Positions 2,000-55,266 of a stretch of 64,000 nucleotides of DNA are shown here, one piece after another; the stretch's first letter is position 1; each line of letters starts with the position of its first letter. A program made the position numbers and the translations under genes. This stretch comes from Vitis vinifera (Eukaryota > Streptophyta > Magnoliopsida > Vitales > Vitaceae). The notes under the pieces were generated by a model. That model searched no databases. It had not been told where the DNA came from and worked only from the letters and a program-made list of their open reading frames with translations. The stretch lies in contig NC_081810.1 of assembly GCF_030704535.1 (NCBI RefSeq), positions 5,861,501-5,925,500 of the forward strand, read 5' to 3'.

Positions 2000-3240
2000 A
2001 AGAGGAACACAGACACCTAAAACAGAAAGCAAATTAGAATCAGAACCAAATGATAAACAACTTCAAAAGAAGAACATTAATCAGTAAGTGTAGTAACTAA
2101 ATGTGGCAGGCATGCCATCATCAAAACACTTGCCCGGTCTTTATCAAACCGTTAGTTGGATGTAGGGACCATTTTTCTAAACTCTGCATTCCCACATTGA
2201 TGGATTTCAGCTTTACGCAATCCCTAAGAATAAGCTTCTCAAGCAACCAAAGAAAAAAAATGGCATCATATCTTCAACACTCTTTAATCCTTTTGTTCCC
2301 ATATACCACCGCCTTCACTCAATCAGCCCTCAGGTGGATACGCTTTTTCCTTTTCTTTTTATAAAGGCCAAAGCAATCAAGGTCTCTTCTTTACAATATT
2401 CCTACACTCAATTCTCTAGTTGAAGACAAACTACCATAACAACCAACTTAACTACCTCTATTTTTTCACACAAAAGAAGGTCAGAATCTTAGCCCCAAAA
2501 GCAAAATAAAAAGGGAAAGTTGTATGAGTGGGAGAGTGATATTTTAGAATTTAATCAATAGGAATTATAGAAATCCCCCACCCACCACATGCATGTAATC
2601 TTAACCCATCATCTATTACACCCCGCATTCAAGAGGAAATCTTTACCAATTATGAACAAAATTCGTTTCTTCACCAACCTTTCCAAGTGGGTGCCAATAT
2701 ATTATGCATGTACTTATTATACAGGTTGATTTTCCCCTGAATTTACATAATGTCTTAATAGTATTTCAGCAGATGAACAGCACAAAACATCCAAGTAAAA
2801 TGCATAACTACTCTGCTTATACTAAAGGAAGTGCAACAAAATTCTCATGTATTATACAAGAAATGGGCCTGCCATCTAGCTCACTCTAGAGTATTATTGT
2901 GCCTATCATACACAAATCCAAAAAGGGAAGTTGAACAATTCTCAAAGCATAGACAGTACTGACCATTTAGCGAGACTTTTCAAGTGACTGCTTTACAGTG
3001 TCACTGTGCCTGCTCTATCCACATTTTTTTTTTTTATATGCTTTTTACTCAAGGGCAAAATTTACTTACAGCGAATATGATCACACAAATAATAGTGAAA
3101 CTTGAAGCTTTTACAATAATCACCTCAAATAAAATAGAAACCAAATCAATTTTGGGGACAGGCATTTGTTAGCTGCTTACTTGTTAGAAAGAAGGTGAAA
3201 AGTTCAGAGAGGAAACTTGAATCCATATCTGTGGTACCAT
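2000..3240 (-). other. Possible 3'-UTR exon of the DCD-domain gene
   Basis: On the minus strand a good acceptor (TTTATTGCAG|GATGG) lies at about 3241. It could pair with a donor (CAAG|GTTAG) at about 4665, just downstream of the DCD gene stop codon at 4796. The sequence below 3241 has no long minus-strand reading frame, as expected for an untranslated exon. Where it ends is unknown. This is inferred from splice signals only; cDNA is needed to confirm it. Confidence 0.3.
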
Positions 3241-3489
3241 CCTGCAATAAATTTACAAACTTAGCTACTGACATCTCTCAGATCAAGACACTTCAGTAAC
3301 TTTTAGTAAAAGAGTGATTTCATGAACCAAAATCAATTTCAGAGTTAACTATTTCTTACAAAGAAAGAAAAAAAAGATAGAAGAAAGAGAATCACATAAC
3401 CAAACCAAGACTAGGATGGTACTTCAACTACAACATCCAACTCTATATACTCCTCGCCACAGAATTACTCCTTGAGTGTACAGTCCTAG

Positions 3490-3745
3490 GGTTAAGCTTT
3501 GTTGGGTCATTGAGCAAAACTAAGTTCAAAATCAATCTTTCGCCCGAGCACAATAACCCCTAACTGTTGCTTGGGCTAAACTTTGTTGGATCATTGAGCA
3601 AAACTAAGTTCAAAATCAATCTTTCGCCCGAGCACAATAACCCCTAGCTGTTGCTTGGGCTAAACTTTGTTGGGTCATTGAGCAAAACTAGGTTCAAAAT
3701 CAATCTTTCATCCACTGGCCTACTTACCCCTAACTGTTGCTTAAC
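3490..3745. repeat. 84-bp tandem repeat, 3 copies
   Basis: Three direct copies of an 84-bp unit can be anchored on TGAGCAAAACTA at 3511, 3595 and 3679. The first two are nearly identical; the third diverges in its second half after CAATCTTTC. The array lies in the proposed 3'-UTR intron of the DCD gene. Confidence 0.9.
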
Positions 3746-4660
3746 TTGCCCTACACTAAAAAAAAGATGGAATATCCTGAGAGTGAAATATTAAACACGT
3801 TTAAAAACAGGACACATGCTTAATTAGTATCCAGATCTACCAGAAAATCATACTTTAGATTTATTAGGAGAGGGGAGAGAGAGATGAGAATAATCTAGGC
3901 AACACTCTAATAGAAAATTTGGATCATTTGCCCTAAATATACTGCCAGTAATACAATACTAGGATGACTTAACTTTCTATCAAATGAACCCAACTAGAAA
4001 AATATCAAACTGAAAATACAGGGAAATTTCCAATATATTCAAAAGGACAACCAGATAAAATGGAAAAGAAAATTTCAAAATCAGGATAAAAAAAATGGAT
4101 AATGCAAGTAAAGCATATATTATGGTGTATAAAACTATCATACACGAACTTAAGAGCATGAAAACTGATTTCAAAATTTTCATTCAATAAAGATGATATC
4201 AAATGAAAATATATGGAAACAAAAGTTTCTTTTGCAAAGACTAGTAAATAGGAAGAAAAAAAATTGTATCTTCATTCAAATGCAATCCTTCGCCATGATT
4301 CTATAATGATTACATTTTACCCCCATTTAGCATATAAAACGACTAAATAAGAGTGCATTTATCAAATATAATAGACTGAAGAGTAATTAAATTTTTATAA
4401 GCTAAAAATAGTTCTTTGCTTTCAAAAATTCTGTCACAGCAAACATATGGTCCATTGAACCCACCAATCGGGGTGCTAATAACAAAGCAGACCATGCTGT
4501 GATAACAAAACAACAGAATTCAACATGCTCCATTAAACTAAACAAAATGCAGAAAATATTGCACAATCAAAACCAACCTTAAGAGGTTTCTCCCAACCAA
4601 ATTCCCACTTACTTCATACAAATCAATTGTTTAAGTATCCAGTAAAGCAAGCAGCATTAG
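3746..4660. other. AT-rich sequence, probable intron, no gene seen
   Basis: Short frames on the minus strand (for example 3980-4202) are low-complexity and hydrophobic by composition. They show no family resemblance. I see no RNA gene or transposon boundary here. Confidence 0.4.
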
Positions 4661-4795
4661 CTAACCTTGTTTGAAAGTCACTATGTTGTTAAGAAACTAA
4701 TTGAAAACATGAAGCAAAGCTCTCCATGAGTACTGAATAAGAATTGTTCGGGAAAATTGAACAACAGATTTTTACCAATCTCAGATTGGGATCTA

Positions 4796-7700
4796 CTAAC
4801 GATATGATGATCGAAGATGAAGATACTCAGGTTGCCATCCTGCAGAGAGGTATTCAGATGATGGACCAGCAAGAGTATAGTATTCCAGCGGGGGACCTGC
4901 AGGAGGATGGTGTTCGGATGATGGGCCAGCTGGAGGATAATATTCAGGTCGAAGACCTGCAGGAGGACGATGTTCAGACAATGGGCCAACTGGAGGATAA
5001 TATTCAGGTCGAAGACCTGCAGGAGGGCGGTGTTCAGATGATGGGCCAGCTGGATAATATTCAGGTCGAAGACCTGCAGGAGGATGGTGTTTAGATGATG
5101 GGACAGCTGGAGGATAATATTCAGGTCGAAGACCTGCAGGAGGATGGTATCCAGATGACCGGCCACCAGAATATATCAGATCATGGGAAAAAGGAGGTTC
5201 TCTGTATCGCACATAGGGATCACGGTATTCAATATCATCTTGACGCCTCATTTCCAAGTCTAGATGCTGTCGATCATAACCACCAAGGAGTGGTTCTCTT
5301 CTGTAGACTTCCATTTCTAACGGCCTTTTATAAGCATATGATGGAGGAGGGATTGCAGCAGCCGGCGGAAGAGGCAATGGGGCATGTAGAGGCCGTGATG
5401 CCCTTGGAGATGTGTACACCTCCCTCTCATATAGAGCAGGAGGCTCCTTATAAAGACGGTCCTCATGCAATACAGGGTGCCTTTCTTCTTCTCGACCTAG
5501 CTGGGTTCTTCTCTGCCGGTCTGAAGCTGTACAGCCTTCTCCTCTGAGACTTCTTCCCGAATCCTTGGACTTGGGGCCCTTGCTAGCAGCTTGGAAAAGC
5601 TTGCACAAATTCTTCACCTATTGACCAATATATGAATGCAATCACCATTTGGCATCAGATGCACGAGAGCAAGTTTAGCTAGTTCGATGCTACACATGCT
5701 TTTGAATCTAAATATGTACAAAGAAGAGAAGTTCCAACCTGATCTGAATTCAATTCACAGTTGAACTTGTTCTTCTTATAGTAGTTATCTTTGATGACCT
5801 TCTTGAACTTTTCTTCAGCCAACGGCAAGCAATCTTCCAAAACAGAGAACCGGACCTACAAAAAAAAATAAAATTGAATACTTAAATAATGATCAAAATG
5901 TTCCATATAATTAAGTTAATTCTCCATTTCTTGTATAAGTGTTCTAAACCAAGTTTACACAGATGCCAGACAAAAAAATATATTATAATTGCAGTAACTA
6001 AAACAAAATAATGGATGGCAAGAAAACTGAAGGATAAAGCCATTACTGCCTCCTGAGATTGCATGGGGCAATACCAATGTACTTGTTTCCTTTCTTTAAT
6101 GGGTGACATAGGGCTTCAATTAATTTGTTAAAAGTACAATTAAAAAGAAGAGAGACACTTTATCATTCAGTTACCTAATAAAAAAAAATTACAACCATAT
6201 AAATAAATAAACAAACAAAAATACAAGTGATGTCCTGCATAAATCGAATTACATGGTAAGCGTCAAATGTCACATATGATCTATCTTAACACATGTGATT
6301 ACTCATTTTCTACCTAAGAATCTCCTAAGAAACATTCTTGTAAAGGATGAAAGCCAATCAGTCAAGAATAGACATCAATCTTCCCTATAAATAGGATTAC
6401 TTTTATCATGGAGAGGGACTTTTGTTTTGGTAGAAGTCCCAGAGAGAAAGAGCTTCAAATTCTGTACATAGAAAACCCAAACAAAAACTTAAGCCCAAGG
6501 AGATTTTCATCACCCTTTGACCCAAGATGCTAGAGACTTGAAAGACAGCTCTACAAGCTCTTCATGATCCTTCAAACAGAAGATCTCAGACACTTGAAAG
6601 ATAATCCAAAGAATTTATCATGATTCTGTCATTACTTTCATCATCATTATGCTCCCTTCATCCCGCCTCAAGCTAACCATCCCCTAATCATCCTTTCTGA
6701 CAAATTAAAGGGATGCTTCACTACTAGGACACTAGGATGTTTTCTTGATAACACACATTCTTGCCATTGATAACTTGTGTCAATTTCTCAAATGAAACAA
6801 ACCCCAAAACAACCACAATTTCCATCAAAAAGCTCTGCAATTCGAGTAAAATATGAAAAGTGAAGAAAGGGCAAGGTTGATACGTCATCTCTATAACTCA
6901 TCCAATGTCATAGGATTATGGTAGGTTGACACAAATGCCTACCGTTAGGCGAATGTCCAAATACTTCATAGACCCACAACGTGTAGAAGCCTATTCATGG
7001 TGGTTGCAAAGGGGCTTCCCTTACTTTATCCCTAAGTAGAGACAAAGCCTACGACTTAACGATTTCCAAAACCCTCTTGAAAATGTTATTCTTAATGCAA
7101 CACTACTTATTTTAATAGGTAAATTAAGAAAATATATAAAAAGCTTGAAAAGACGCACCAAAGCAAACACAGTATACAAATAAGGCCAATAAGCAAGCAA
7201 AAAAAGAGGACAATAAAAATCAACCACCTAATCAAATCCTATACCTCATTGCCCTAGAGAAACTAGAATGCCCCCAGTTAATCCTTTTACCTCCTTTGCT
7301 TCCGAAATTAAGAATCTCCCCACTCCTACGTTCCTCACCATAGGAACCGACAATTGATGCACCTTTGATTCTTGTAAGCAGACTAGATCTCCCCCTTAGG
7401 CTCTTCAACAAAGACTCTATGACATTCCACTTTTCCACAACATGTTCAGCTTAACATTCCAAGATAGAATTTTTAGCATCATCATGCAATGAAAGCCAAA
7501 TCCTCATTGCTCTTCTCAATACCCTTATTTATTATAAGAGATTTTTTTTGTAATTTATTGAGCATTCCAATTTCCAAAGCTCCCTCTCCAAACGAGATGT
7601 CAAGTTTGCCTTCCTCTTTACTCATGAGGTAGAAACACTATGCCCTCTCCTTGCCTCTATCTTCCTCATAAGATGTAATCTCCTCTGCAAAGCCCATAAC

Positions 7701-10190
7701 TAACATTCTCACAAAACTCTAAAATTTGCTAACTCATAAAAGAAACCAGGCAGAGCATGCTCCTTTCCCACCAAATGGTAGCCAATATTCTCCTTAGAAA
7801 ACTCTTGCCTCTTTGAACTGACTATAATTTCATAAGTAGGACCTTTCAAAGCACTCTCCAAGATTTCCAACAAGACATCTTGAAGCACCATCCTCAAAAG
7901 CCCATTTCTAGCCCCAACGACAAGAAGCACAAGATGAAGACTTACTTTCAAAGCAGTCAACATCATCTTCTCCTGTTCCACTCTCCTCTAAACCTTAAAA
8001 CATCTGTTCACCACCTCCCTTTTACCCATGTTCACCACCTTTGCAAAAGAAACACCATTTGGAGGACTTCACCTCTGGTTGTCAAACATCCACCTTGAGG
8101 GCCTCCAAAGGTCTAAACAAAGGAACAACTCCATTGCTCCTCTACTTGGTGGCTTGGCTAAGGTTTTCCTTTCCCATAGGACAACCCTATGTTCTGGGAA
8201 TACTAAGGAGAACCTTTCCCCTCTACTAACAAAATTGAGCATATAAAGAATCCACTAATGTTGTTGCACAGCTCCAACATGTAGCTTCTTCCACCTTCAA
8301 TCCACTCCACCTTGAAAGGCTTTCTCGATTTCCCTTCATGGCAAAGCTTCAACCCCCTCTAGCAACCAAGCTAAACCCCTCTCACCAAATATGATCCAAG
8401 AGGAAAACCCCCGACCCTTCTCGACAATCTCACCAATCGCCGCCTTAGCTTTCTTTGACCACCTTTATCGAAATTTCAAAGGATTTCAATTCAACTCCAA
8501 ACTAGCATTTTCCTCCTTGTGTTTGCATCTCTTAGCATTCATTTATGCTTAGGCTCTATCTTCTTGATAAAGAATCAACTTTTTAACACACACACACACA
8601 CATACGTATGTATTTATGTGGACTCATAAAGACTCAAATAGCCACGACAAGGGAACTGGTCACAAGAAGACCAACCCCTAATAGCACTCTAATGCTAATA
8701 TATTTGCCTGAGTTAGACTTAAGTAATAATGTGGACTCAGTGCACAATCATAGTGAAATTGGCACTCTTGTCACTATATATTGTGGAACCTATTTAAGGG
8801 TTTCGTTTTAACAAACAAGTACAAAAGGCTCCTCAAAATGGGACTAACATCCATCAAGCAAAGTTCAACTAGAATTAAAAGGAGTGGGATCTAATAATGT
8901 CTATTAGACATCTATGACAACAAAAACCAACATGTTAACACTCATCAACTGATAGATTCTTCAACAAAAAGGGTCTCAACCCAAGGTTAGAGACACTTGC
9001 ATTTTCTCTTTCCCTTCAATGTCTTAGTGTTTTCAATTTGGATCTCCCGAATATCATGCTTCTATTTTGTTTCTTTTTATAAGTTAATTCATACCTTCTC
9101 ATTTTATTTTTTTATTAAAAGAAAACATGTAATCCCTCATCCTTTAAGATGGCTTCCTACTATTACCCACCAAATAAAACGAGATCATTTTTCATTTTGA
9201 AAGAATGAAAGTATCATACAATACAAGCATTAAAAAGAAAGTATTTAATAATATCTCTTTTGTATATAATACAATAACATAATGTAACATTTTATACGAT
9301 AAGCAACGAGATTAGGTTGCTCAAACCTCCAACTAGAGCCCAACTCGAATAAAGTAGAAATGAGACTTTGCCTAAGCACAAATCGAATTACTAATCAAGT
9401 TGCACAAGACCACCCAAAGTTGGGAAACATCAAGTTGAGCCCACCTAAGTTGTAAGTCTACTTGCACCTTCTCAAACTAATTTGCAATCGATCTAATATA
9501 CTTAATAAACAAGCACATGAATCGAGTTATCAAGCCAAAATATATTAAATAAAATTCTAAAGTATGAACACTAACCTGAGACGGGAACGAAGATTTGAAA
9601 GCTTTGGGCTCAATATTATAACCCCCGGGTCCTGTAGCTTTATAAATCCCATACATCAATCTCAAATCAAAATCAAACAAAAACAACCTCATGCCTTTAT
9701 AAATCTTTTGCACCACTTGTTTCTTACTTGCAGGAAGCCCTAAAACCTTGTAATGGTAGCAATCCTTCTTCGTTTTGGAACTACACATGAAAATCATTCC
9801 AAAACTATCAGCCTTCTTCTTCGAAGATTCGGGCTTATCTGCTTCCTTTGTTGCCTTGGCACTAGTATCTTCTAGTGTTTTCTTTTTACTTGTTTTCTTC
9901 GTCTTCATGACCTTTTTCTTTTTTGTAGAATTCCTTTCTACTTTTCCTCCACTTTTTGCTTCTTTACTCATTCTCATATCAGTTTTGACCTTTTTTTTTG
10001 CATTTTCTTCCTTACTATCCCTTTCTTTTGTTACTTCCTCCTTATTCTTGTTGTTTGGAACAACAATAGCTTCTTCAACATTAGTCTCCATTGTCTCAAA
10101 AGTAGTCGCCTGAATTTCACTTTTCTTAGCTAAAGCATTTGTTTCCGATTGTGGTTTGGAGGTTTTACCCTTGTCTTTCACATTCTCCAT
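4796..10190 (-). CDS. DCD (Development and Cell Death) domain protein with Lys-rich N-terminus and Pro/Tyr-rich repeat tail
   Basis: Three coding exons were joined by hand: 10190-9576, 5855-5739 and 5617-4796 (615+117+822 nt, 517 aa). All junctions are phase 0 with GT-AG ends. Residues 1 to about 130 are Lys/Glu/Ser-rich and resemble a nuclear-targeting region. Residues about 135-260 are the DCD domain, with [11 protein letters not shown], the LGLPASKK stretch, LFLFDFD, YGIYKA and [13 protein letters not shown]. The last motif is created by splicing across a 3.7-kb intron, which supports the model. The tail (about residues 330-510) repeats [10 protein letters not shown] plus a GPSSEH-like linker about five times. 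DCD proteins are plant-specific and linked to stress and cell-death responses (NRP type); the exact role here is unknown. The start is the first ATG after a possible acceptor at 10197; MIIQVIM upstream is open in frame, so further coding sequence upstream is possible. Confidence 0.85.
4861..5160 (-). repeat. Coding 60-bp minisatellite in the DCD protein tail
   Basis: Four to five direct copies of a 60-bp unit (one is 57 bp) are anchored on GATAATATTCAGGTCGAAGA. They encode a 19-20 residue Pro/Tyr-rich repeat containing GLRPEYY. Because the unit length is a multiple of three, copy gain or loss keeps the frame. The copies are almost identical, which suggests recent homogenisation or slippage. 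Confidence 0.9.
5856..9575 (-). other. Large intron (3.7 kb) within the DCD domain; degenerate repeat content
   Basis: The intron runs from donor CAG|GTTAG at 9576/9575 to acceptor TTTTGTAG at 5856. Between about 7,230 and 8,520 the minus strand reads as a series of broken frames. Pieces such as [21 protein letters not shown] (7232-7438) and the Leu-rich segment at 7709-7981 give the impression of a decayed non-LTR (LINE) ORF1. That assignment is weak. A (CA)n run lies at 8586-8602. No intact gene is visible inside. Confidence 0.55.
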
Positions 10191-19848: not shown

Positions 19849-20041
19849 ACGTCCCTAGGACCTCTGCTCAGCCACTGTGACCGGAAAAAAACTCCGGAAG
19901 ACCCACCTGGTATCATCTTCATCTTCATCTTCCTGGTCAGTTCCAGCGCTGCTTCCCTCTGATTTCTGCTACCTCACAGTGCTCCAGCCGGTTATCCGTT
20001 AATATACAACAAATCTTGTCAAACCAGAACCGACAAACTCC

Positions 20042-23000
20042 ATGGCAGAATCTAAAGACATAACACAACCTCTCATTCCCCAGACCGATTCCATCCTTAG
20101 CGATCTAACTACAAGAATGACCGAGGTCCTGACTAGAGCCCAGACCTCCCCTCAACCTCTGCTTGCTGATTCGTCAACTACTCCGATTGGTATCAAGTTG
20201 GAAGGATCCAACTATGCCTTATGGTCCCAGGTTGTCGAGATGTATATCTCTGGCAAGGACAAGCTAGGATATATCAATGGAGATTATCCTCAGCCTCCAG
20301 AAACCGATCCTTCATTCAGGAGATGGCGCACCGAAAACGCCATTGTCAAGGGATGGTTGATCAATTCAATGGACCCTTCCTTGATTGCCAATTTTATCTG
20401 ATTCCCAACTGCAAAACAGGTTTGGGATTCTGCTGCTATAACCTATTTTGATGGGACAGACACGTCTCAAGTCTATGATCTCCGACGTCGGGTTACTCGT
20501 ATGAAGCAGGCGGGTGGATCCATTGAAAAATACTACAACGACCTTCAAGGGCTGTGGCGAGAAATCGATTTTCGTCGTCCTAACCCGATGGAGTGTGCTA
20601 TTGACATACAGAAATACAATTCCATTCTACAGGAAGATCGAGTTTATACTTTCCTTGATGGACTAGATGACAGATTGGATAAAACTCGGAGTGATGTTCT
20701 ACAAATTAAACCATTCCCTACGGTGGAACAGGCCTATGCATTTGTCCGTAGGGTCAGGCAGACCGTGATGATCTCGGGTGCAGATACTCCTCCAGGAGCA
20801 GTTATGGCTTCCAAAGGGATCAAGGGCAGCCATCACTAGATGCCACCGAAACCTGGAGCTCTCTCCCTAAGCAGCGGGAAATCCAACTCCTCATTCAAAA
20901 CTAAACCACCATCTGATGGCATGAAGTGTACCCATTGCGGCAACACCAAACACACCCGTGACACCTGCTTCAAACTACATGGATATCCAGATTGGTGGAA
21001 TGACCTTCAAGCATGGAAAAAACGGGAAATCATTGCTAATGATAACCACACTGGGAGAGCTGCTGTGGTTACCTGTGATGCTTCGTTATCCCTCATTCCT
21101 CAAGCCGAATCTTCACATGATTCAGGTACTTCGAGTAAGGTTTTTCATATCTCTACTCACAAGGATGATGAGGACTGGATTCTCGACTCTGGGGCTACAG
21201 ACCACATGACATTTGATTCAAAGGATTTCTCTAATACAACTCAGCCGAGACGGAGCTGTGTTGCAAATGCTAATGGGGTCACCTATCCAGTTACAGGGGC
21301 TGGAACAGTGACTTTATCTCATTCCCTTTCATTATCTAATACATTACTTGTACCATCTCTTTCAAATAGACTGATGTCTGTAAGCCAAGTTACTTCAGAT
21401 CTTAATTGTGTGGTATTGATGTATTCTACTTTTTGCCTTCTTCAGGATATTCTCACCAAGGAGATAATTGGGCGTGGTACTAAGAGAGGGGGGTTATACT
21501 ACGTGGATGCCTTCAGTTCGGGAAGAGCAAATCACATGCACCACAAGGTTGGTAACAAGGAGAGGCAGATTTAGTTATGGCATCATCGACTTGGGCATCC
21601 ATCATTTGGGTATTTGAAGCACTTACTACCTAGGTTATTTTCAAAGGCAACACATTTAGATTTTAAATGTGATACTTGTATCTTAGCCAAAAGTCATAGG
21701 GCTTCTTATCCCATGAGCATGAATAAAAGTATGATTCCTTTTGATTTAATACATTCCGATGTTTGGGGACCTTCACTAGTAACTACGTCTTCTGGTCATC
21801 GTTGGTTTGTAATATTTGTTGATGATTGCACACGAATGACATGGCTTTACCTCCTAAAACACAAAGATGAGGTATTTACTATTTTTCAATCATTTCATGC
21901 CATGGTTCAGACACAATTCTCTGCAAGAATTAAGATCCTTCGTTCTGACAATGGAGGGGAATATGTTAATCAACAATTCCAGACATACTTCAACAACCAT
22001 GGTATTCTCTATGAAACCTCATGTTCACAAACCCCACAACAGAATGGTATTGCTGAAAGGAAAAATAGGCATATCTTAGAAACTGCCCGTGCTCTATTGA
22101 TCAATGCACATGTGCCGAATAGATATTAGAGTGATGCTGTTACCACAGCCGTGTATCTACTGAACCGTATGCCCACCAAAGTCTTACAATTTCAGACTCC
22201 ACTAAAGGTGCTTTCTTATCATGTCTCCTTACCGACTGTTTTGATGATTCCTCCCCGAATTTTTGGTTGTGTTGCTTTTGTTCACCTCCATAAAAATCAA
22301 CGAACTAAGTTGGACCCATGTGTTGTCCGGTGTTTATTCTTGGGGTATGGAGTACAAAAAAAGGGATACAGATGCTACGATCCCATTGCTAAAAGAACCT
22401 ACATTACCATGGATGTCACCTTCCTTGAATCTGAATTTTTCTTTTCACCGATATCCAATTCCCCTCTTCAGGGGGAGATCTATGGTGAAGAACGGAATTG
22501 GTCTGATGTTGAAGTGTTAGAAGTTGGTGACAATCCAACACATCCGAATGATGACAACGACTTGGTTGAACATGATCCCGTACCTGAACCTCTGAGAACT
22601 GAAGCTGAACCAGTACCTGAATCATCGGAAGATGCAGAATCTGATGTATTCCCTCACTCTTTAGTACCCAACGACCCTCCTACTGAGAATATTCCTGAGG
22701 TAAGCTCTCCTACCACACCTTTACAAACTAATGCTATAGATACATCTGCGGGTTATGTTCTACCTTTCAGACACAATCGAGGCAAGCCTCCAAATCGATA
22801 CTCCCCATACATAGAAGAACGACGATCCAAGTATCCAATAGCTAATCATATGTCTACACAAAGATTATCTGAACCTCTCAGAGCTTTTGCACATACACTC
22901 TCCTCATGTCAGATTCCGAGTAGGGTTGAAGAAGCTTTCTCGGATCCGAAATGGGCTCAAGCTATAAAAGAAGAATTGGAGGCGTTGCAGAAAAATAATA

Positions 23001-24451
23001 CATGGGTTTTGAGTGTGTTGCCGGAAGGGAGGAAGACAGTGGGGTGCAAGTGGATTTTCTCTATTAAATATAAAGCAGATGGGTCGATTGATCGATACAA
23101 GGCGAGGTTGGTAGCAAAGGGATATACATAGAAACATGGTATAGATTATCAGGAAACTTTCTCACTTGTAGCAAAACTAAAAACTGTTAGAGTTTTGTTA
23201 TCTCTTGCAGCAAACTTAGATTGGCCATTGCACCAACTTGACGTAAAAAATGCCTTCCTCCATGGTGATCTTGAAGATGAGATTTACATGGATATTCCAC
23301 CAGGCTACACTGCTACATCAGAGGCAAAGATCGCATGTACGTTACAACGAGCATTGTATGGACTAAAGCAATCACCTCGAGCATTGTTTGGCAGGTTGAG
23401 TTCGGCAATGAGGAAATATGGATTTCAACAAAGCAACTCTGACCACACTCTCTTCCTAAAACATCGATTGGGAAAAATAACAGCCCTCATAGTCTATGTA
23501 GACGACATGATAATTACAAGGGATGGTGTAGAAGAAATATCCAGGCTTCAAGATCAATTGTCAACTGAGTTTGAGATGAAGAACTTAGGAGGGCTTAAAT
23601 ATTTTTTGGGCATTGAAGTGGCAAGGTCAAGACAAGGCATATTTCTTTCCCAAAGGAAATATATACTAGACTTGCTGGCAGAAGTGGGATTACTAGAGTG
23701 TAAGCCTGCTGATATTCCAATTGTCCAAAATCATAAACTTGGAGAATATGTAGACCAGGTACCAGCGGACAAACAGAGATATCAACGGTTAGTGGGTAAA
23801 CTCATCTATTTATCTCATACTCGGCCAGACATTACTTATGCTGTGAGTGTAGTGAGTCAATTCATGCACCGGCCGAGTGAAGACCATATGGATGCTGTAA
23901 TGCGAATCCTTCGGTATTTGAAGTCCTCTCCTGGGAAAGGGCTTATGTTCTCAAAGAATGGTCATTTGAAGGTTGCTAGCTATACAGATGCGGACTGGGC
24001 AGGGAACATCACAGATAGGAAATCCACTGCTGGGTACTTTACTTTTGTGGGAGGCAACCTAGTTACATGGAGGAGCAAGAAACAGAAAGTAGTTGCCCTG
24101 TCTAGTGCTGAAGCTGAATTTCGGGGAATGGTCAAGGGAATATGTGAGCTCATTTGGCTGAAAAAGCTGCTAGCTGAGATCGGTGTTGCTCCTAGTTCCG
24201 AAATGAACTTGTTCTGTGATAACACAGCGGCCATTGCTATCTCCCACAATCCGGTTCAACATGATCGCACTAAGCACGTTGAGGTGGATCGGAACTTCAT
24301 CAAACAAAACCTTGAAGAAAAGATTATTCAGCTTCCATTTGTCAAATCAGAAGACCAGTTGGCTGATGTACTCACCAAAGTAGTGTCTGCAAGGAATTTC
24401 TACAACTCACTTGACAAGTTGGGCATAAAATATATCTATGCACCAACTTGA
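20042..24451 (+). pseudogene. gag-pol polyprotein of the copia element, five in-frame stops
   Basis: A single frame runs from ATG 20042 to TGA 24449-24451 with no frameshift. It is cut by TGA at 20399-20401 and TAG at 20837-20839, 21572-21574, 22127-22129 and 23129-23131. Gag covers about 20042-20900, with a zinc knuckle (CTHCGNTKHTRDTC) near 20927-20968. The protease motif DSGATDHM is near 21185. The integrase catalytic region has DVWGPS (about 21758), SDNGGEY (about 21945) and AERKNRH (about 22052). Reverse transcriptase has LDVKNAFLHGDL (about 23240) and YVDDMI (about 23494). RNase H has YTDADWAG (about 23980). Catalytic residues look present between the stops. Each stop is one transition (C to T or G to A) from a sense codon expected at that position. 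Confidence 0.95.
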
Positions 24452-51890: not shown

Positions 51891-53098
51891 AGTGAATCTT
51901 CAACGCAAAATCCTCAAAAAAAGAAAAAAAAATCTCAATAATAAACGATTAAATACAGAGCAATCGATCAAAAATGTGAGTGGATTGTGCGGCGATTGGT
52001 GGGAGACAGCGAAGATCAGTGGACGTTAGGGTTTTGAATTGGGGAACCGAGAGCAGACAATGAACAAGTGCCAAAGAAGCAATATGATAAATTAAATGCT
52101 AAAAAAATAAATAAAATACATGAAAAAAGCTTAGTTGTAGACTTGTAGTGTCGTAGACGTGACATTATTGGGGCTGAGGCATGAGATCGTGTAATGTATT
52201 GGTTCTTAGGTGGAATGCACGTGACCTCATCACTGTTCCATAAATGCACCAAAATACCACATGCCTCCATCACTTCCTCTTTCCCTTTTTGTTTTTGGGT
52301 CTATTTATTTAGCCTTCGTCCTCGTGGGTTTCCCCTGGTCAAGCAAGCCTCCTGCATTTAAGATATTAAAATATCTTATGTTCTAATTATTAAGTTAAAG
52401 TTAAAATCAAATCATAATTTTTATTTAAATAATATTAATATTTTAAATTTTTTATGAAAAAAATTGCATAAATCAAAATAAAAATTGTATAATCAGTAAT
52501 TTTTTTTTATTAAATTTCATATTAGTCTAATTAAATAGAATTTAAAGTTGATTATGGAAATTAATTTTAATTATTTTCCTTTTTTTTTTCTCTTTATAAT
52601 GCCACAAGTGAAAGTACTCCAGTGTAAAAGCAATACATGTAGTTTATTATCTTTCCATTAAAAGACAATTGCGAAATCAAATTTGATTCCTTGTAACGTC
52701 TCCATCAATACTTAAATTAATTAATGTTGTTATTCATGTCAATGTGAAAATGAAATCCTATAAATAAAATCTCCATTAATAAGAAAATGACAAATTTTTT
52801 TTAATGATGCTTAGATTAAAGAGATATTTGATTAGAAGAGTCAATTTTTTTTAATAATTTATAAATTTTTAAAAATAATTTATATTTTAAAAAAGTAATA
52901 ATTCACTATTATAAATATATATTAATAATTATAAATGACTTGACAACTCTTTTTTTTATATTTTTTTGTAAATAATTAAATATCATATTTAATTCTAATT
53001 TTCCGATTACCTAAATGAATGAAAGATATATATATATATATACATATTTGCACCACTCTGTGTCGAATCTACTTAAGCACAACTCCGATGGACTTTTC
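51891..53098. other. Intergenic region upstream of the RAB5IF-like gene
   Basis: The first 150 bp contain its probable 5' UTR and promoter. From about 52370 the sequence becomes very AT-rich. No gene is recognised. Confidence 0.45.
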
Positions 53099-53101
53099 TT
53101 A

Positions 53102-54046
53102 ATAGTACGGCAATTTAAAAAATTTATGCTTAAATTATTGTAGTAGAAGAAGTTATTACAAATATATGGTAGTTTTTGCCACATAGGAGAGAGGGTGAAC
53201 AAATAAATTTTTTTAAAACCAAAATCATCTTTTCAAACAAAGCTCCGAGACGAGTTTCATGAAAAAACAAATATATATATATATTTAAAAAAAAATCATC
53301 TTTCAAACAAAGGGAACTCGTCTCTTAAAGAAACGAGTTCCATGAAATATATATATATATATTTAAAAATTCTCTATTTACTCAAGGGAACTCGTCTCTT
53401 AAAAAAAATATATATTTTTTATTTAAAAAAAAATCCCAAATTTATTTAAAAAAAAAAAGACAAAACAAAAGCAATTCCTCCATGGTTTGTTTGAGATAAC
53501 AAAGTACATATGTCCTCCTTGAAAAATTTCATGTTCTAAAAATCTAATTTTTGTTTTAAATAATTTTATTTTTAAGCAGAAAAAGCCGCTTTAATGACAT
53601 TGAAAATATATTTTTTTAATTTGAGATTTTTAAACTTTTTTTTCAAGGGAACTCGTCTCTACGAATTGCCTTGAAGATTTTTTTTTAAAAAACTAATTTT
53701 TTTTCATAGGAACTCGTCTCTTGAAGAGACGAGTTCCCTTGAGGAAATTTTTTTTTTTTTTTAATTTGGGATTTTTTTTAAAAAAATATATATATACTTT
53801 TAAAAAAAATATTTTTTTTTCAGAAGAGACGAGTTCCCTTGAGGAATTGGTTTTTTTCTTTTTTCTTTTTTTTATTTTTAATTTGGGATTTTTTTTAAAT
53901 AAAAAATATATTTAAAAAAAGAGACGAGTTCCCTTTAGGAATTTTTTTTTTAATTTGGGATTTTTTTAAAATAAAAAATACATTTAAAAAAAAATATTTT
54001 TTTTCCCATGGAACTCATCCTTTAGGAAATTTTTATTATCATTATT

Positions 54047-54086
<40 letters not shown>

Positions 54087-54402
54087 TTTTTAAATATTTT
54101 TTTTACATGGGAACTCGTCTCTTGAAGAGACGAGTTCCCTTGAGAAATTGTTTTTTTTTTTTTTTTTAATTTGGGATTTTTTTAAATAAAAAATATATTT
54201 AAAAAATATATATATATATATTTTTTTCCATGGGAACTCGTCTCTTCAAGAGGGAACTGAAGAGACAGTTCCCTTTAGGAATTTTTTTTTATTTAATTTG
54301 GGAATTTTTTTAAATATATATATATATATCTTTTAAAGAGACGAGTTCCTTTGAGGAATTGCCTTTTTTTTTTTTTAATAATTTGGGAATTTCTTAAACA
54401 AA

Positions 54403-54459
<57 letters not shown>

Positions 54460-54802
54460 TGGAACTCGTGTCTTGTTTTTTTTTTTAAAAAATAATTTGA
54501 GAATTTTTTTTTTTAAAAATATTTTTTTTTCAAGAGACGAGTTCTCCTGAGCTTGTTTTTTGTTTTTTTATTTTTTTTATTTTATAATTTGGGAATTTTT
54601 TAAAAAAATAATTTTTTTTTTCCATGGGAACTCGTCTCTTGAAGAGACGAGTTCTCTTTGTTTGAAAGATGATTTTGGTTTTAAAAAAATTTATCCGTTT
54701 ATCCTCTCTCCTCTCTCCTATGTAACAAAAACTATCATATATTTGTAATAATTTCTTCTCCTACAATAATTTAAGCATAACCTTTTTAAATTACCGTACT
54801 AT
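53102..54802. mobile_element. 1.7-kb foldback-like element: long terminal inverted repeats filled with a palindrome satellite
   Basis: The ends are inverted copies: ATAGTACGGCAATTTAAAAA at 53102 and, reversed, ATAGTACGGTAATTTAAAAA ending at 54802. Similarity extends about 155 bp inward with small gaps, through TATGCTTAAATTATTGTAG, ATTATTACAAATATATG, ACATAGGAGAGAG and AAAACCAAAATCATC. TTA flanks both sides (53099-53101, 54803-54805), consistent with a 3-bp target duplication. The interior has no coding capacity. It repeats the palindrome arm GGGAACTCGTCTCTT and its complement about a dozen times between T-rich/A-rich spacers. A 3-bp TTA duplication is seen with PIF/Harbinger elements, but I do not recognise these ends. 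Confidence 0.75.
53290..54665. repeat. Interspersed 31-bp palindrome satellite
   Basis: The clearest copy is 54109-54139: arm GGGAACTCGTCTCTT, one central G, then the exact complement AAGAGACGAGTTCCC. Other full or near-full palindromes are at about 53312-53342, 53709-53738 and 54626-54655. Half or altered copies are at about 53387, 53645, 53825, 53920, 54004, 54233 (with an internal rearrangement), 54335, 54463 and 54534. Spacers of about 60-110 bp share TTTAATTTGGGATTTTTTTAAA and (TA)n runs. Confidence 0.88.
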
Positions 54803-54805
54803 TTA

Positions 54806-55266
54806 AAAAATTCCCAACTCCGGGCGGATGTAAATGAAATTCAAATTTTTTGAAATTCATGACCAGGCTTTCGTGGACGCAAGTCAAGTGTAAGGGGCAC
54901 GACACGGGCCCACATGCAACTTCATGGAACGCGACTTCAAACTCAGAATAACCCAAAAGCCCATACGGCCCGCGGAACCCTTTCCCCCATTTCACGCTCC
55001 TCTTCTGCACGTGGTTGATACTTTCCAGAACAGCCATCACTCTGTCGTCGACCCTTCAAAGAAAAAGAGCCGCGTCCCAAAAAACGCTCGAAAACGCTCG
55101 AAATTCAGAACCGCCAACTATCTCCACCCTTCGTCGTCGCACCTTTCTCTCCACCACTTTCTCTATCTGGGGTTTCAATTTCTCTCTAATTTCAATCAAT
55201 CTTCTCTCGATTTTCCAGAAACTGTTTGGATCTTAGGAAGAGGAATCGAGTTAGAGGTCAATTGCG
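54806..55266 (+). other. Promoter and 5' UTR region of the ORP3 gene
   Basis: The right border of the foldback element lies only about 460 bp upstream of the ORP3 ATG. The sequence from about 55040 is CT-rich, as in plant leaders. No clear TATA box is seen. An open frame at 54924-55295 overlaps the ORP3 start in another frame and is probably accidental. Confidence 0.4.

What the first reader, a model, noticed from the sequence alone, without database searches (positions are those of the whole stretch)
53102..54802. Foldback-like element whose interior is a satellite of 31-bp palindromes
The element has about 155-bp inverted ends, a TTA duplication, and some dozen copies of a palindrome arm (GGGAACTCGTCTCTT) spaced by AT-rich blocks. 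The arms have stayed nearly perfect while the spacers have drifted. That suggests copying of the unit inside the element, selection, or repair of hairpins. Transcripts of either strand would form strings of short hairpins and, through the long inverted repeats, one large foldback, so it is a plausible small-RNA source. I recognise no described family with this layout. It sits about 460 bp upstream of the ORP3 start codon.
Basis: partly seen in the sequence, partly recalled or inferred. Interest (0 to 1): 0.8.

Follow-up and report, generated by a model that had tools for sequence, protein, structure and literature searches.

The report
Deletion derivative of a satellite-bearing MULE
A 1.7-kb jumping-gene relic upstream of a plant gene looks like a shortened copy of a large Mutator-type transposon whose non-coding parts are filled with one repeated DNA palindrome, possibly a landing site for a protein that the full transposon encodes.

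Summary
The element is real, but its ends lie 12 bp further out than reported (53090-54814) and the TTA duplication is wrong: the duplication is 10 bp (8/10 here, 10/10 in 7 of 21 complete elements examined). It belongs to a large dispersed family: the 15-nt arm occurs 1181+1183 times in the genome (control 0+1). Searching with its middle led to a 14.3-kb full-type copy with the same ends, encoding a Mutator (MURA) transposase and a plant-mobile-domain (PMD) protein; none of the 78 palindrome arms of that copy lies in the ORFs. The window's middle is a fusion of 37 bp of MURA coding sequence and 116 bp from beside the PMD-side array; at least five copies share this fusion. So it is an internal-deletion, foldback-type derivative of a MULE, not an unknown class. 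Two related PMD-MULEs lack the palindrome in the parts seen; one has a 152-bp repeat between the same two genes. The likeliest role of the arrays is as binding sites for an element-encoded protein, a layout like that of Arabidopsis VANDAL/VANC anti-silencing targets. That role is inferred, not shown. I found no sign of hairpin repair. Verdict: new variant of a known kind.

The parts
53080..53089 (.). left copy of the 10-bp target-site duplication, CAACTCCGAT
   Evidence: 8/10 match to 54815-54824; own pairs reach >=8/10 in 15 of 21 complete elements (14 by script, L027 by hand), mismatched pairs in 0 of 420
53090..53194 (+). left terminal inverted repeat (105 bp), begins GGACTTTTCTTAATAGTAC
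53195..53232 (+). inner part of the inverted end
   Evidence: I10: 53185-53232, 92% complementary to 54665-54712
53312..53400 (.). left palindrome array: one palindrome (53312-53342) and one single arm (53386-53400)
53481..53517 (+). 37-bp remnant of MURA transposase coding sequence, 36 of 37 bases as C9:1148035-1147999
53516..53631 (+). 116-bp remnant of the sequence beside the PMD-side array, 95.7% to C9:1140984-1140869
53647..54656 (.). right palindrome array: 13 arms with at most 3 mismatches; the AATTTGGGA-type spacer motifs scored there are on the + strand
54109..54139 (.). one exact 31-bp palindrome, GGGAACTCGTCTCTTGAAGAGACGAGTTCCC
   Evidence: 0 of 1000 shuffles as good; fold z -8.65, 0 of 200
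54665..54709 (-). inner part of the right inverted end
   Evidence: I10
54710..54814 (-). right terminal inverted repeat (105 bp)
54815..54824 (.). right copy of the target-site duplication, CAACTCCGGG

Best explanation
The element is a non-autonomous, foldback-shaped derivative of a Mutator-type transposon. The full element is about 14 kb: 105-bp terminal repeats, a MURA transposase gene, a plant-mobile-domain (PMD) gene, and non-coding stretches (outside each gene and between the two) filled with a ~97-bp repeat that carries a 31-bp palindrome. Deletion of almost everything between the outer arrays, joined at a few shared bases, gave the window's subfamily, which was then copied to several places by transposase supplied from full copies. 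Shown: common ends, duplications, family size, the full copy with both genes, and the deletion fusion shared by five copies. Inferred: that MURA moves the derivative; that each palindrome is a two-fold binding site for an element-encoded protein (PMD protein, or MURA); and that the arrays multiply by slippage or unequal exchange because more sites help the element escape silencing or be transposed.
For: Family: arm 1181 forward + 1183 reverse exact hits, control 0+1; terminal 27-mer 21+22, control 0+0. Transposition: 10-bp duplications (>=8/10) in 15 of 21 complete elements (14 by script, L027 by hand) and perfect 9-bp ones in 2 more; 0 of 420 mismatched pairs reach 8/10. Full copy at C9:1138168-1152452: ends 97.6% (over 83 bp) and 99% (over 105 bp) to consensus, TATAGGATA on both flanks; Pfam MULE 2.5e-18, DBD_Tnp_Mut 2.8e-11, SWIM 1.4e-9, PMD 8.1e-50. 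78 arms in that copy, 0 in the 4,756 bp of ORFs of 14,285 bp. Derivation: window middle = MURA fragment + array-side fragment; five copies (window included) share the fusion at 94-98%, 40 of 120 candidates scored. Graded losses: L078 has PMD but no MURA, L083 part of PMD and no MURA in the 9.5 kb fetched. Seven MURA matches at 96-100% among 75 of 938 candidates scored; 7 of 7 lie 6.0-7.1 kb from an array-side fragment as in this copy, and two of them (C9:1847655, C7:150858) have an uninterrupted 860-codon frame (compared by eye). Role: a related PMD-MULE (L071) has another repeat, 152 bp x 6.1, between the same two genes; the PMD tail diverges fast (30% against 69-78% for the domain, L084) and has repeats, as described for VANC proteins (PMC5735166, section read).
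Against: No binding, expression, methylation or small-RNA data. Arms are conserved about like the terminal repeats by median, about twice as well by mean, with counting bias in their favour, so selection on them is not proven. 4 of 21 elements show no clear duplication, among them L078. The 152-bp unit of L071 is not palindromic beyond chance (338 of 1000 shuffles), so a palindrome is not a rule of the clade. The sister L084 has no arms in the 4 kb seen and only ~120 bp between the MURA and PMD matches, so an array between the genes is not obligatory. A remoter MULE with no PMD in the 8 kb fetched (L070) also has a tandem repeat, so repeats do not need PMD. DUF1985, the VANC domain, scores 16.6 bits against a cut-off of 35.1.
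Confidence: 0.6

Rival explanations
1. The palindrome array is a neutral satellite that rides in the transposon: slippage and unequal exchange multiply a ~97-bp unit that happens to hold a palindrome, with no bound protein.
For: Arms decay about as fast as the ends by median; the number of arm units varies from 7 to 36 in the elements; a remoter MULE (L070, no PMD in the 8 kb fetched) also has a tandem repeat, 74 bp x 6.3.
Against: Arms are kept in all three arrays of the full copy and in derivatives that lost the genes; 0 of 78 arms in ORFs; the 12 bases after the palindrome are 49-92% conserved in 209 oriented units against 87-100% for arm positions 2-15 (biased, since units with gapped arms were not counted).
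Confidence: 0.28
2. A narrower form of the best explanation: the palindromes are transposase (MURA) sites that extend the terminal repeats, as the multiple binding sites in the long ends of foldback-like Galileo; the PMD gene is unrelated to them.
For: Arrays lie next to both ends and point outward in 10 of 14 elements; Galileo precedent (PMC3688188, title and start of abstract seen in the listing); L070 has a repeat but no PMD in the 8 kb fetched.
Against: A third array lies between the two genes of the full copy, 6-7 kb from either end, where an end-recognition site has no obvious use.
Confidence: 0.3
3. The element works as a source of hairpin-derived small RNAs, acting against the family or the neighbouring gene.
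For: Strong hairpins: 221 nt of the array fold as RNA at z -7.2, one unit as DNA at z -8.65.
Against: No transcription or small-RNA data; at gathering threshold Rfam finds only one tRNA in the window; a palindrome this short, nearly without a loop, is not a usual precursor (own knowledge).
Confidence: 0.12
4. Local inverted duplication, not a mobile element.
For: None found.
Against: Family-wide ends and duplications.
Confidence: 0.01

Closest known systems
Mutator-like elements (MULEs) of grapevine (Mutavine/Jitvine/Hopvine; PMC2528002, passages and MULE section)
   Same: MURA-type transposase, long inverted ends in part of the families, many deleted copies, multi-copy full elements up to 17.7 kb
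   Different: Duplications there always 9 nt where found, here mostly 10; that text holds no 'foldback', 'tandem' or 'palindrom'; whether one of its families is this one was not testable, and the host species here is not named
Tm1 Mutator/Foldback elements of root-knot nematodes (PMC3169594, passages)
   Same: Composite inverted ends made of tandem repeats of variable number, 8-10-bp duplications, Mutator-class transposase in a full copy, short derivatives
   Different: Repeat unit 13-15 bp; Phantom-class transposase; PMD gene not mentioned in the passages read
VANDAL elements with VANC anti-silencing proteins (PMC5735166, passages and one section; PMC10398659, outline and abstract)
   Different: Second gene here is PMD; DUF1985 is below cut-off; motif here is a 31-bp palindrome, there YAGTATTAY; binding shown there, not here
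PMD-carrying MULEs of grasses and Amborella (PMC5418596, passages)
   Same: PMD carried by a Mutator-type transposon; the authors speculate about anti-silencing
   Different: There PMD is fused to the transposase; here it lies in separate reading frames, convergent with MURA and separated from it by an array
MuTAnT of Medicago (PMC4486113, first of four parts)
   Same: Foldback-like short MULE derivatives with a related full copy
   Different: No satellite interior described in the part read; targets TA microsatellites

Membership tests
Mutator superfamily (MULE) | 8-11-bp target-site duplication (range from PMC6446971, passage) | tested here: met
   10 bp in 15 of 21, 9 bp in 2 of 21 complete elements; window 8/10
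Mutator superfamily (MULE) | transposase with MULE domain in a copy with the same ends | tested here: met
   C9 copy, PF10551 2.5e-18, PF03108 2.8e-11
Mutator superfamily (MULE) | mobilisation by that transposase | not testable with these tools
   no transposition assay
Foldback-type elements | long inverted ends containing tandem repeats of variable number | tested here: met
   two opposed arrays in 10 of 14 elements, 2 more with one exception, 2 with one direction only
PIF/Harbinger or Tourist MITE (TTA/TAA rule recalled) | TTA/TAA duplication at the element ends | tested here: not met
   TTA lies inside the repeat; ends are 12 bp further out
Pack-MULE | captured host-gene fragment | tested here: not met
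   for the window element: its middle is the family's own DNA. For L073 the 6.6-kb insert has TG..CA ends and a 5-bp ACGAG repeat, read as a nested LTR-type insertion. Arm-free inserts of L074, L054 and L063 were not resolved
VANDAL/VANC | VANC gene with DUF1985 | tested here: not met
   PMD 8.1e-50; DUF1985 16.6 bits, cut-off 35.1
[quoted passage not shown]
   78 arms, 0 in ORFs
VANDAL/VANC | protein binding and loss of methylation at the motif | not testable with these tools
   no binding or methylome data

The most novel reading that the evidence does not exclude
The palindrome arrays are the target of a PMD protein that the transposon encodes, making a second, VANC-independent, sequence-specific anti-silencing system in Mutator transposons: PMD protein and satellite evolve together, so related families have their own arrays, and deletion derivatives such as the window element keep the array in order to share the protection.
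Probability: 0.22. Interest if true: 0.85.

Novelty: new variant of a known kind. Interest (0 to 1): 0.52.

Why it matters
It gives a plant transposon family in which full copies, graded deletion derivatives and arrays of one motif can be compared side by side. It makes an open suggestion testable, namely that transposon-borne PMD proteins act against silencing (raised in passages of PMC5418596 and PMC8616336): there is a candidate protein, a candidate 31-bp target, and relatives with another repeat or none seen as controls. It also corrects the reading of this promoter: the insert upstream of the oxysterol-binding-protein gene is a MULE derivative, not a new element class.

Tried and rejected
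TTA duplication, PIF/Harbinger and Stowaway-like readings: dropped after the true ends were found. Hairpin (arm-to-arm) repair. Hyperconserved arms: not supported. Two abundant MULE families (829- and 860-codon frames; L070-L072) as movers: best match of the 105-bp end there is 26.5 bits and there is no exact 10-nt arm core. Pack-MULE: L073's insert looks like a nested LTR-type element. 152-bp repeat of L071 as a palindrome satellite: 338 of 1000 shuffles as good, fold z -1.29; the 74-bp unit of L070 folds at z -3.07 but 98 of 1000 shuffles are as good by ungapped score. Comparing the 150 transposase places with the ends by eye found no pair within 20 kb; the family's own MURA copies are not in that list. 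Arm search in IMG/VR: 18 stretches with a single hit each, taken as chance. Literal arm in papers: 27 papers hold one of four strings, 20 seen in the listing, none on plants by title. Phage collection: no match. PDB: no match for the PMD piece. Species: size (495.6 Mb) and the contig numbering resemble the 494.87-Mb, 19-chromosome grapevine assembly of PMC10199708 (one passage), but this was not tested further and the host is not claimed. In print: the listings (each a capped list) showed no paper on this family; only open-licence papers are held, and Repbase was not searchable. Rows dropped before counts: L043 (same element as L036) and L034 (the window again); from the duplication table L028 and L029 (an end missing or degraded) and the loci with one end only. 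The 312 palindromic arm pairs were counted before 21 duplicate arms were removed.

Full report
1. The observation. The window holds inverted ends and a run of palindromes, as described. Find-repeats gives 105-bp arms at 53090-53194 and 54710-54814, 90% complementary, plus inner blocks. Sixteen matches to GGGAACTCGTCTCTT with at most three mismatches lie between 53312 and 54656 (18 in the whole window, 0.87 expected). The reported coordinates stop 12 bp short on both sides.

2. A dispersed family. The genome that holds the window (495,616,077 bases, 21 contigs) has 1181 forward and 1183 reverse exact arms, against 0 and 1 for the reversed control. Seven clusters on contig C1 were fetched: five have both ends in full, L028 has one end, L029 has degraded ends. 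Searches with two versions of the end had 354 and 389 first-look candidates and scored 40 of each; every scored place matched. A terminal 27-mer is found 21+22 times, control 0+0. The shared terminus is GGACTTTTCTCAATAGTAC.

3. Transposition. In 21 elements with both ends in hand, a 10-bp flanking repeat (at least 8/10) is present in 14 by script and in L027 by hand (its last bases are mutated and the script misplaced the end), so 15 of 21; 7 of these are 10/10. L036 and L054/L069 have perfect 9-bp repeats. L057, L052, L040/L038 and L078 show none clearly. Of 420 mismatched flank pairs none reaches 8/10. The window has CAACTCCGAT / CAACTCCGGG. This excludes TTA as the duplication and fits the Mutator superfamily (8-11 bp, PMC6446971, passages).

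4. The satellite. In 36 held loci, 783 distinct arms were counted with at most three mismatches, against 3 for the reversed control; 312 neighbouring arm pairs (counted before removing duplicates) sit 16 bases apart and so form 31-bp palindromes; units are spaced 97 bp at the median. In 209 oriented units the consensus reads T-run, CAT, palindrome, TTGAGGAATT, T-run, AATTTGGGA. The spacer motif points left in the left part and right in the right part in 10 of 14 elements (L028, without its left end, included); L031 and L074 have one unit out of order, L027 and L059 show one direction only. So most of these elements are two opposed arrays, a foldback.

5. Conservation. G/C positions 2-15 of the arm differ in 5-9% of copies (mean 6.9%) and A/T positions in 0-4% (mean 1.3%), position 1 in 23%; C-to-T and G-to-A changes are the commonest at most G/C positions, C-to-A at position 6. 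The 105-bp ends show the same G/C bias (47 ends: G/C median 8.5%, mean 12.7%; A/T median 0, mean 3.2%). Arms are thus like the ends by median and about half as variable by mean; arms with more changes or with indels were not counted, which flatters them. In 313 palindromes, identical changes in both arms number 18 at positions 2-15, against 6.9 for partners shuffled over all elements and 11.6 (sd 2.9) within elements; 12 of the 18 are one C-to-A variant. This argues against arm-to-arm repair.

6. The full element. A search with the window's middle (53462-53640; 40 of 120 candidates scored) gave five copies with the whole middle (window included) and others with positions 55-170 or less. Following the latter led to C9:1138168-1152452, 14,285 bp, with ends 97.6% (83 bp) and 99% (105 bp) to consensus and TATAGGATA on both flanks. 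It has a PMD gene on the + strand (1142565-1145215, in several frames; PF10536 8.1e-50) and a MURA gene on the - strand (1146425-1149004; MULE, MuDR DNA-binding and SWIM domains), the latter cut by one in-frame stop. Arrays lie outside the PMD gene, between the genes and outside the MURA gene. Of 78 arms none falls in the ORFs, which make up 4,756 of 14,285 bp, and none lies outside the element in the 18.7 kb fetched.

7. Derivation of the window element. Window 53481-53517 matches C9 MURA coding sequence (36 of 37 bases) and 53516-53631 matches the sequence beside the PMD-side array (95.7%), joined over a few shared bases. C7:4157991, C1:12263325, C3:6384921 and C3:6773386 share the fusion at 94-98% (L077, L040, L035, L082). 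The simplest reading is that the deletion happened once and the product was copied. L078 keeps PMD without MURA; L083 shows part of PMD and no MURA in the 9.5 kb fetched.

8. Copies of the transposase. 75 of 938 candidates were scored: seven full-length matches at 96-100%, then copies at 77-93% mostly with stops, then groups at about 63-67% and 35-42%. By eye, 7 of 7 near-identical copies lie 6.0-7.1 kb from an array-side fragment, as in the C9 element described. Two of the seven (C9:1847655 and C7:150858) have an uninterrupted 860-codon frame; the ends and arrays of the six other copies were not fetched as such (L062 holds an end near the one on C14).

9. Related families. L071 has MURA (34% and 42% identity to the two pieces) and PMD (56% and 46%), and between them a 152-bp repeat x 6.1 that is not palindromic beyond chance; no exact 10-nt arm core was found in its 8.5 kb. 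L084 (67% group; 4 kb seen) has MURA_C at 72%, PMD at 69-78%, a PMD tail at 30% with an 87-bp repeat x 4.0, about 120 bp between the MURA and PMD matches, and no arms. L070, a remoter MULE without PMD in the 8 kb fetched, has a 74-bp repeat x 6.3 after the transposase gene. So in what was seen the palindrome array is specific to this family, while repeats of some kind recur.

10. Function. The layout (further gene, short motif multiplied in non-coding parts, repeats that differ between relatives, second protein with a fast-changing, repeat-bearing tail) is that of VANDAL/VANC (PMC5735166). PMD has been found in MULEs as fusions, with an anti-silencing role offered as speculation (PMC5418596). 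I infer that the palindrome is a two-fold binding site; the protein could be PMD or MURA. The third array, far from both ends, favours a role beyond end recognition. Nothing here shows binding.

11. Verdict. What it is: internal-deletion, foldback-type MULE derivative (about 0.95). What the arrays do: binding sites for an element-encoded protein (about 0.6). New variant of a known kind.

Noticed in passing
L070 and L072 (C6 and C10 of G000): Another MULE family with 829-codon frames and two fetched copies 98-99.5% identical over their longest matches, carrying a 74-bp tandem repeat that folds as an imperfect palindrome.
   Followed up: partly
L073, about 2374-8890: A 6.6-kb insert with TG..CA ends and a 5-bp ACGAG repeat sits inside one palindrome arm; it carries a fragment like LRR receptor kinases, and a 1.6-kb part of it has relatives at 98% (C3) and 93% (C10).
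   Followed up: partly
G000 C5:2092845, 2200731, 2308610: Three exact family termini spaced about 107.88 kb apart, as if a ~108-kb segment were repeated in tandem.
   Followed up: no
window 20003-24451: Ty1-copia-like retrotransposon frames, adjoining open stretches each ended by a stop (family by eye).
   Followed up: no
window 4796-5617, - strand: Open frame with a tandem peptide repeat of the type [19 protein letters not shown].
   Followed up: no
L054:2375-2698 and L063:2706-3065: Two family members on C12 hold inserts with similar translated frames, perhaps a shared nested element or captured fragment.
   Followed up: no
L074 (C15 of G000): A 6.5-kb member with a perfect 10-bp duplication has arms only in its left part and about 3 kb of unexplained arm-free sequence.
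   Followed up: no
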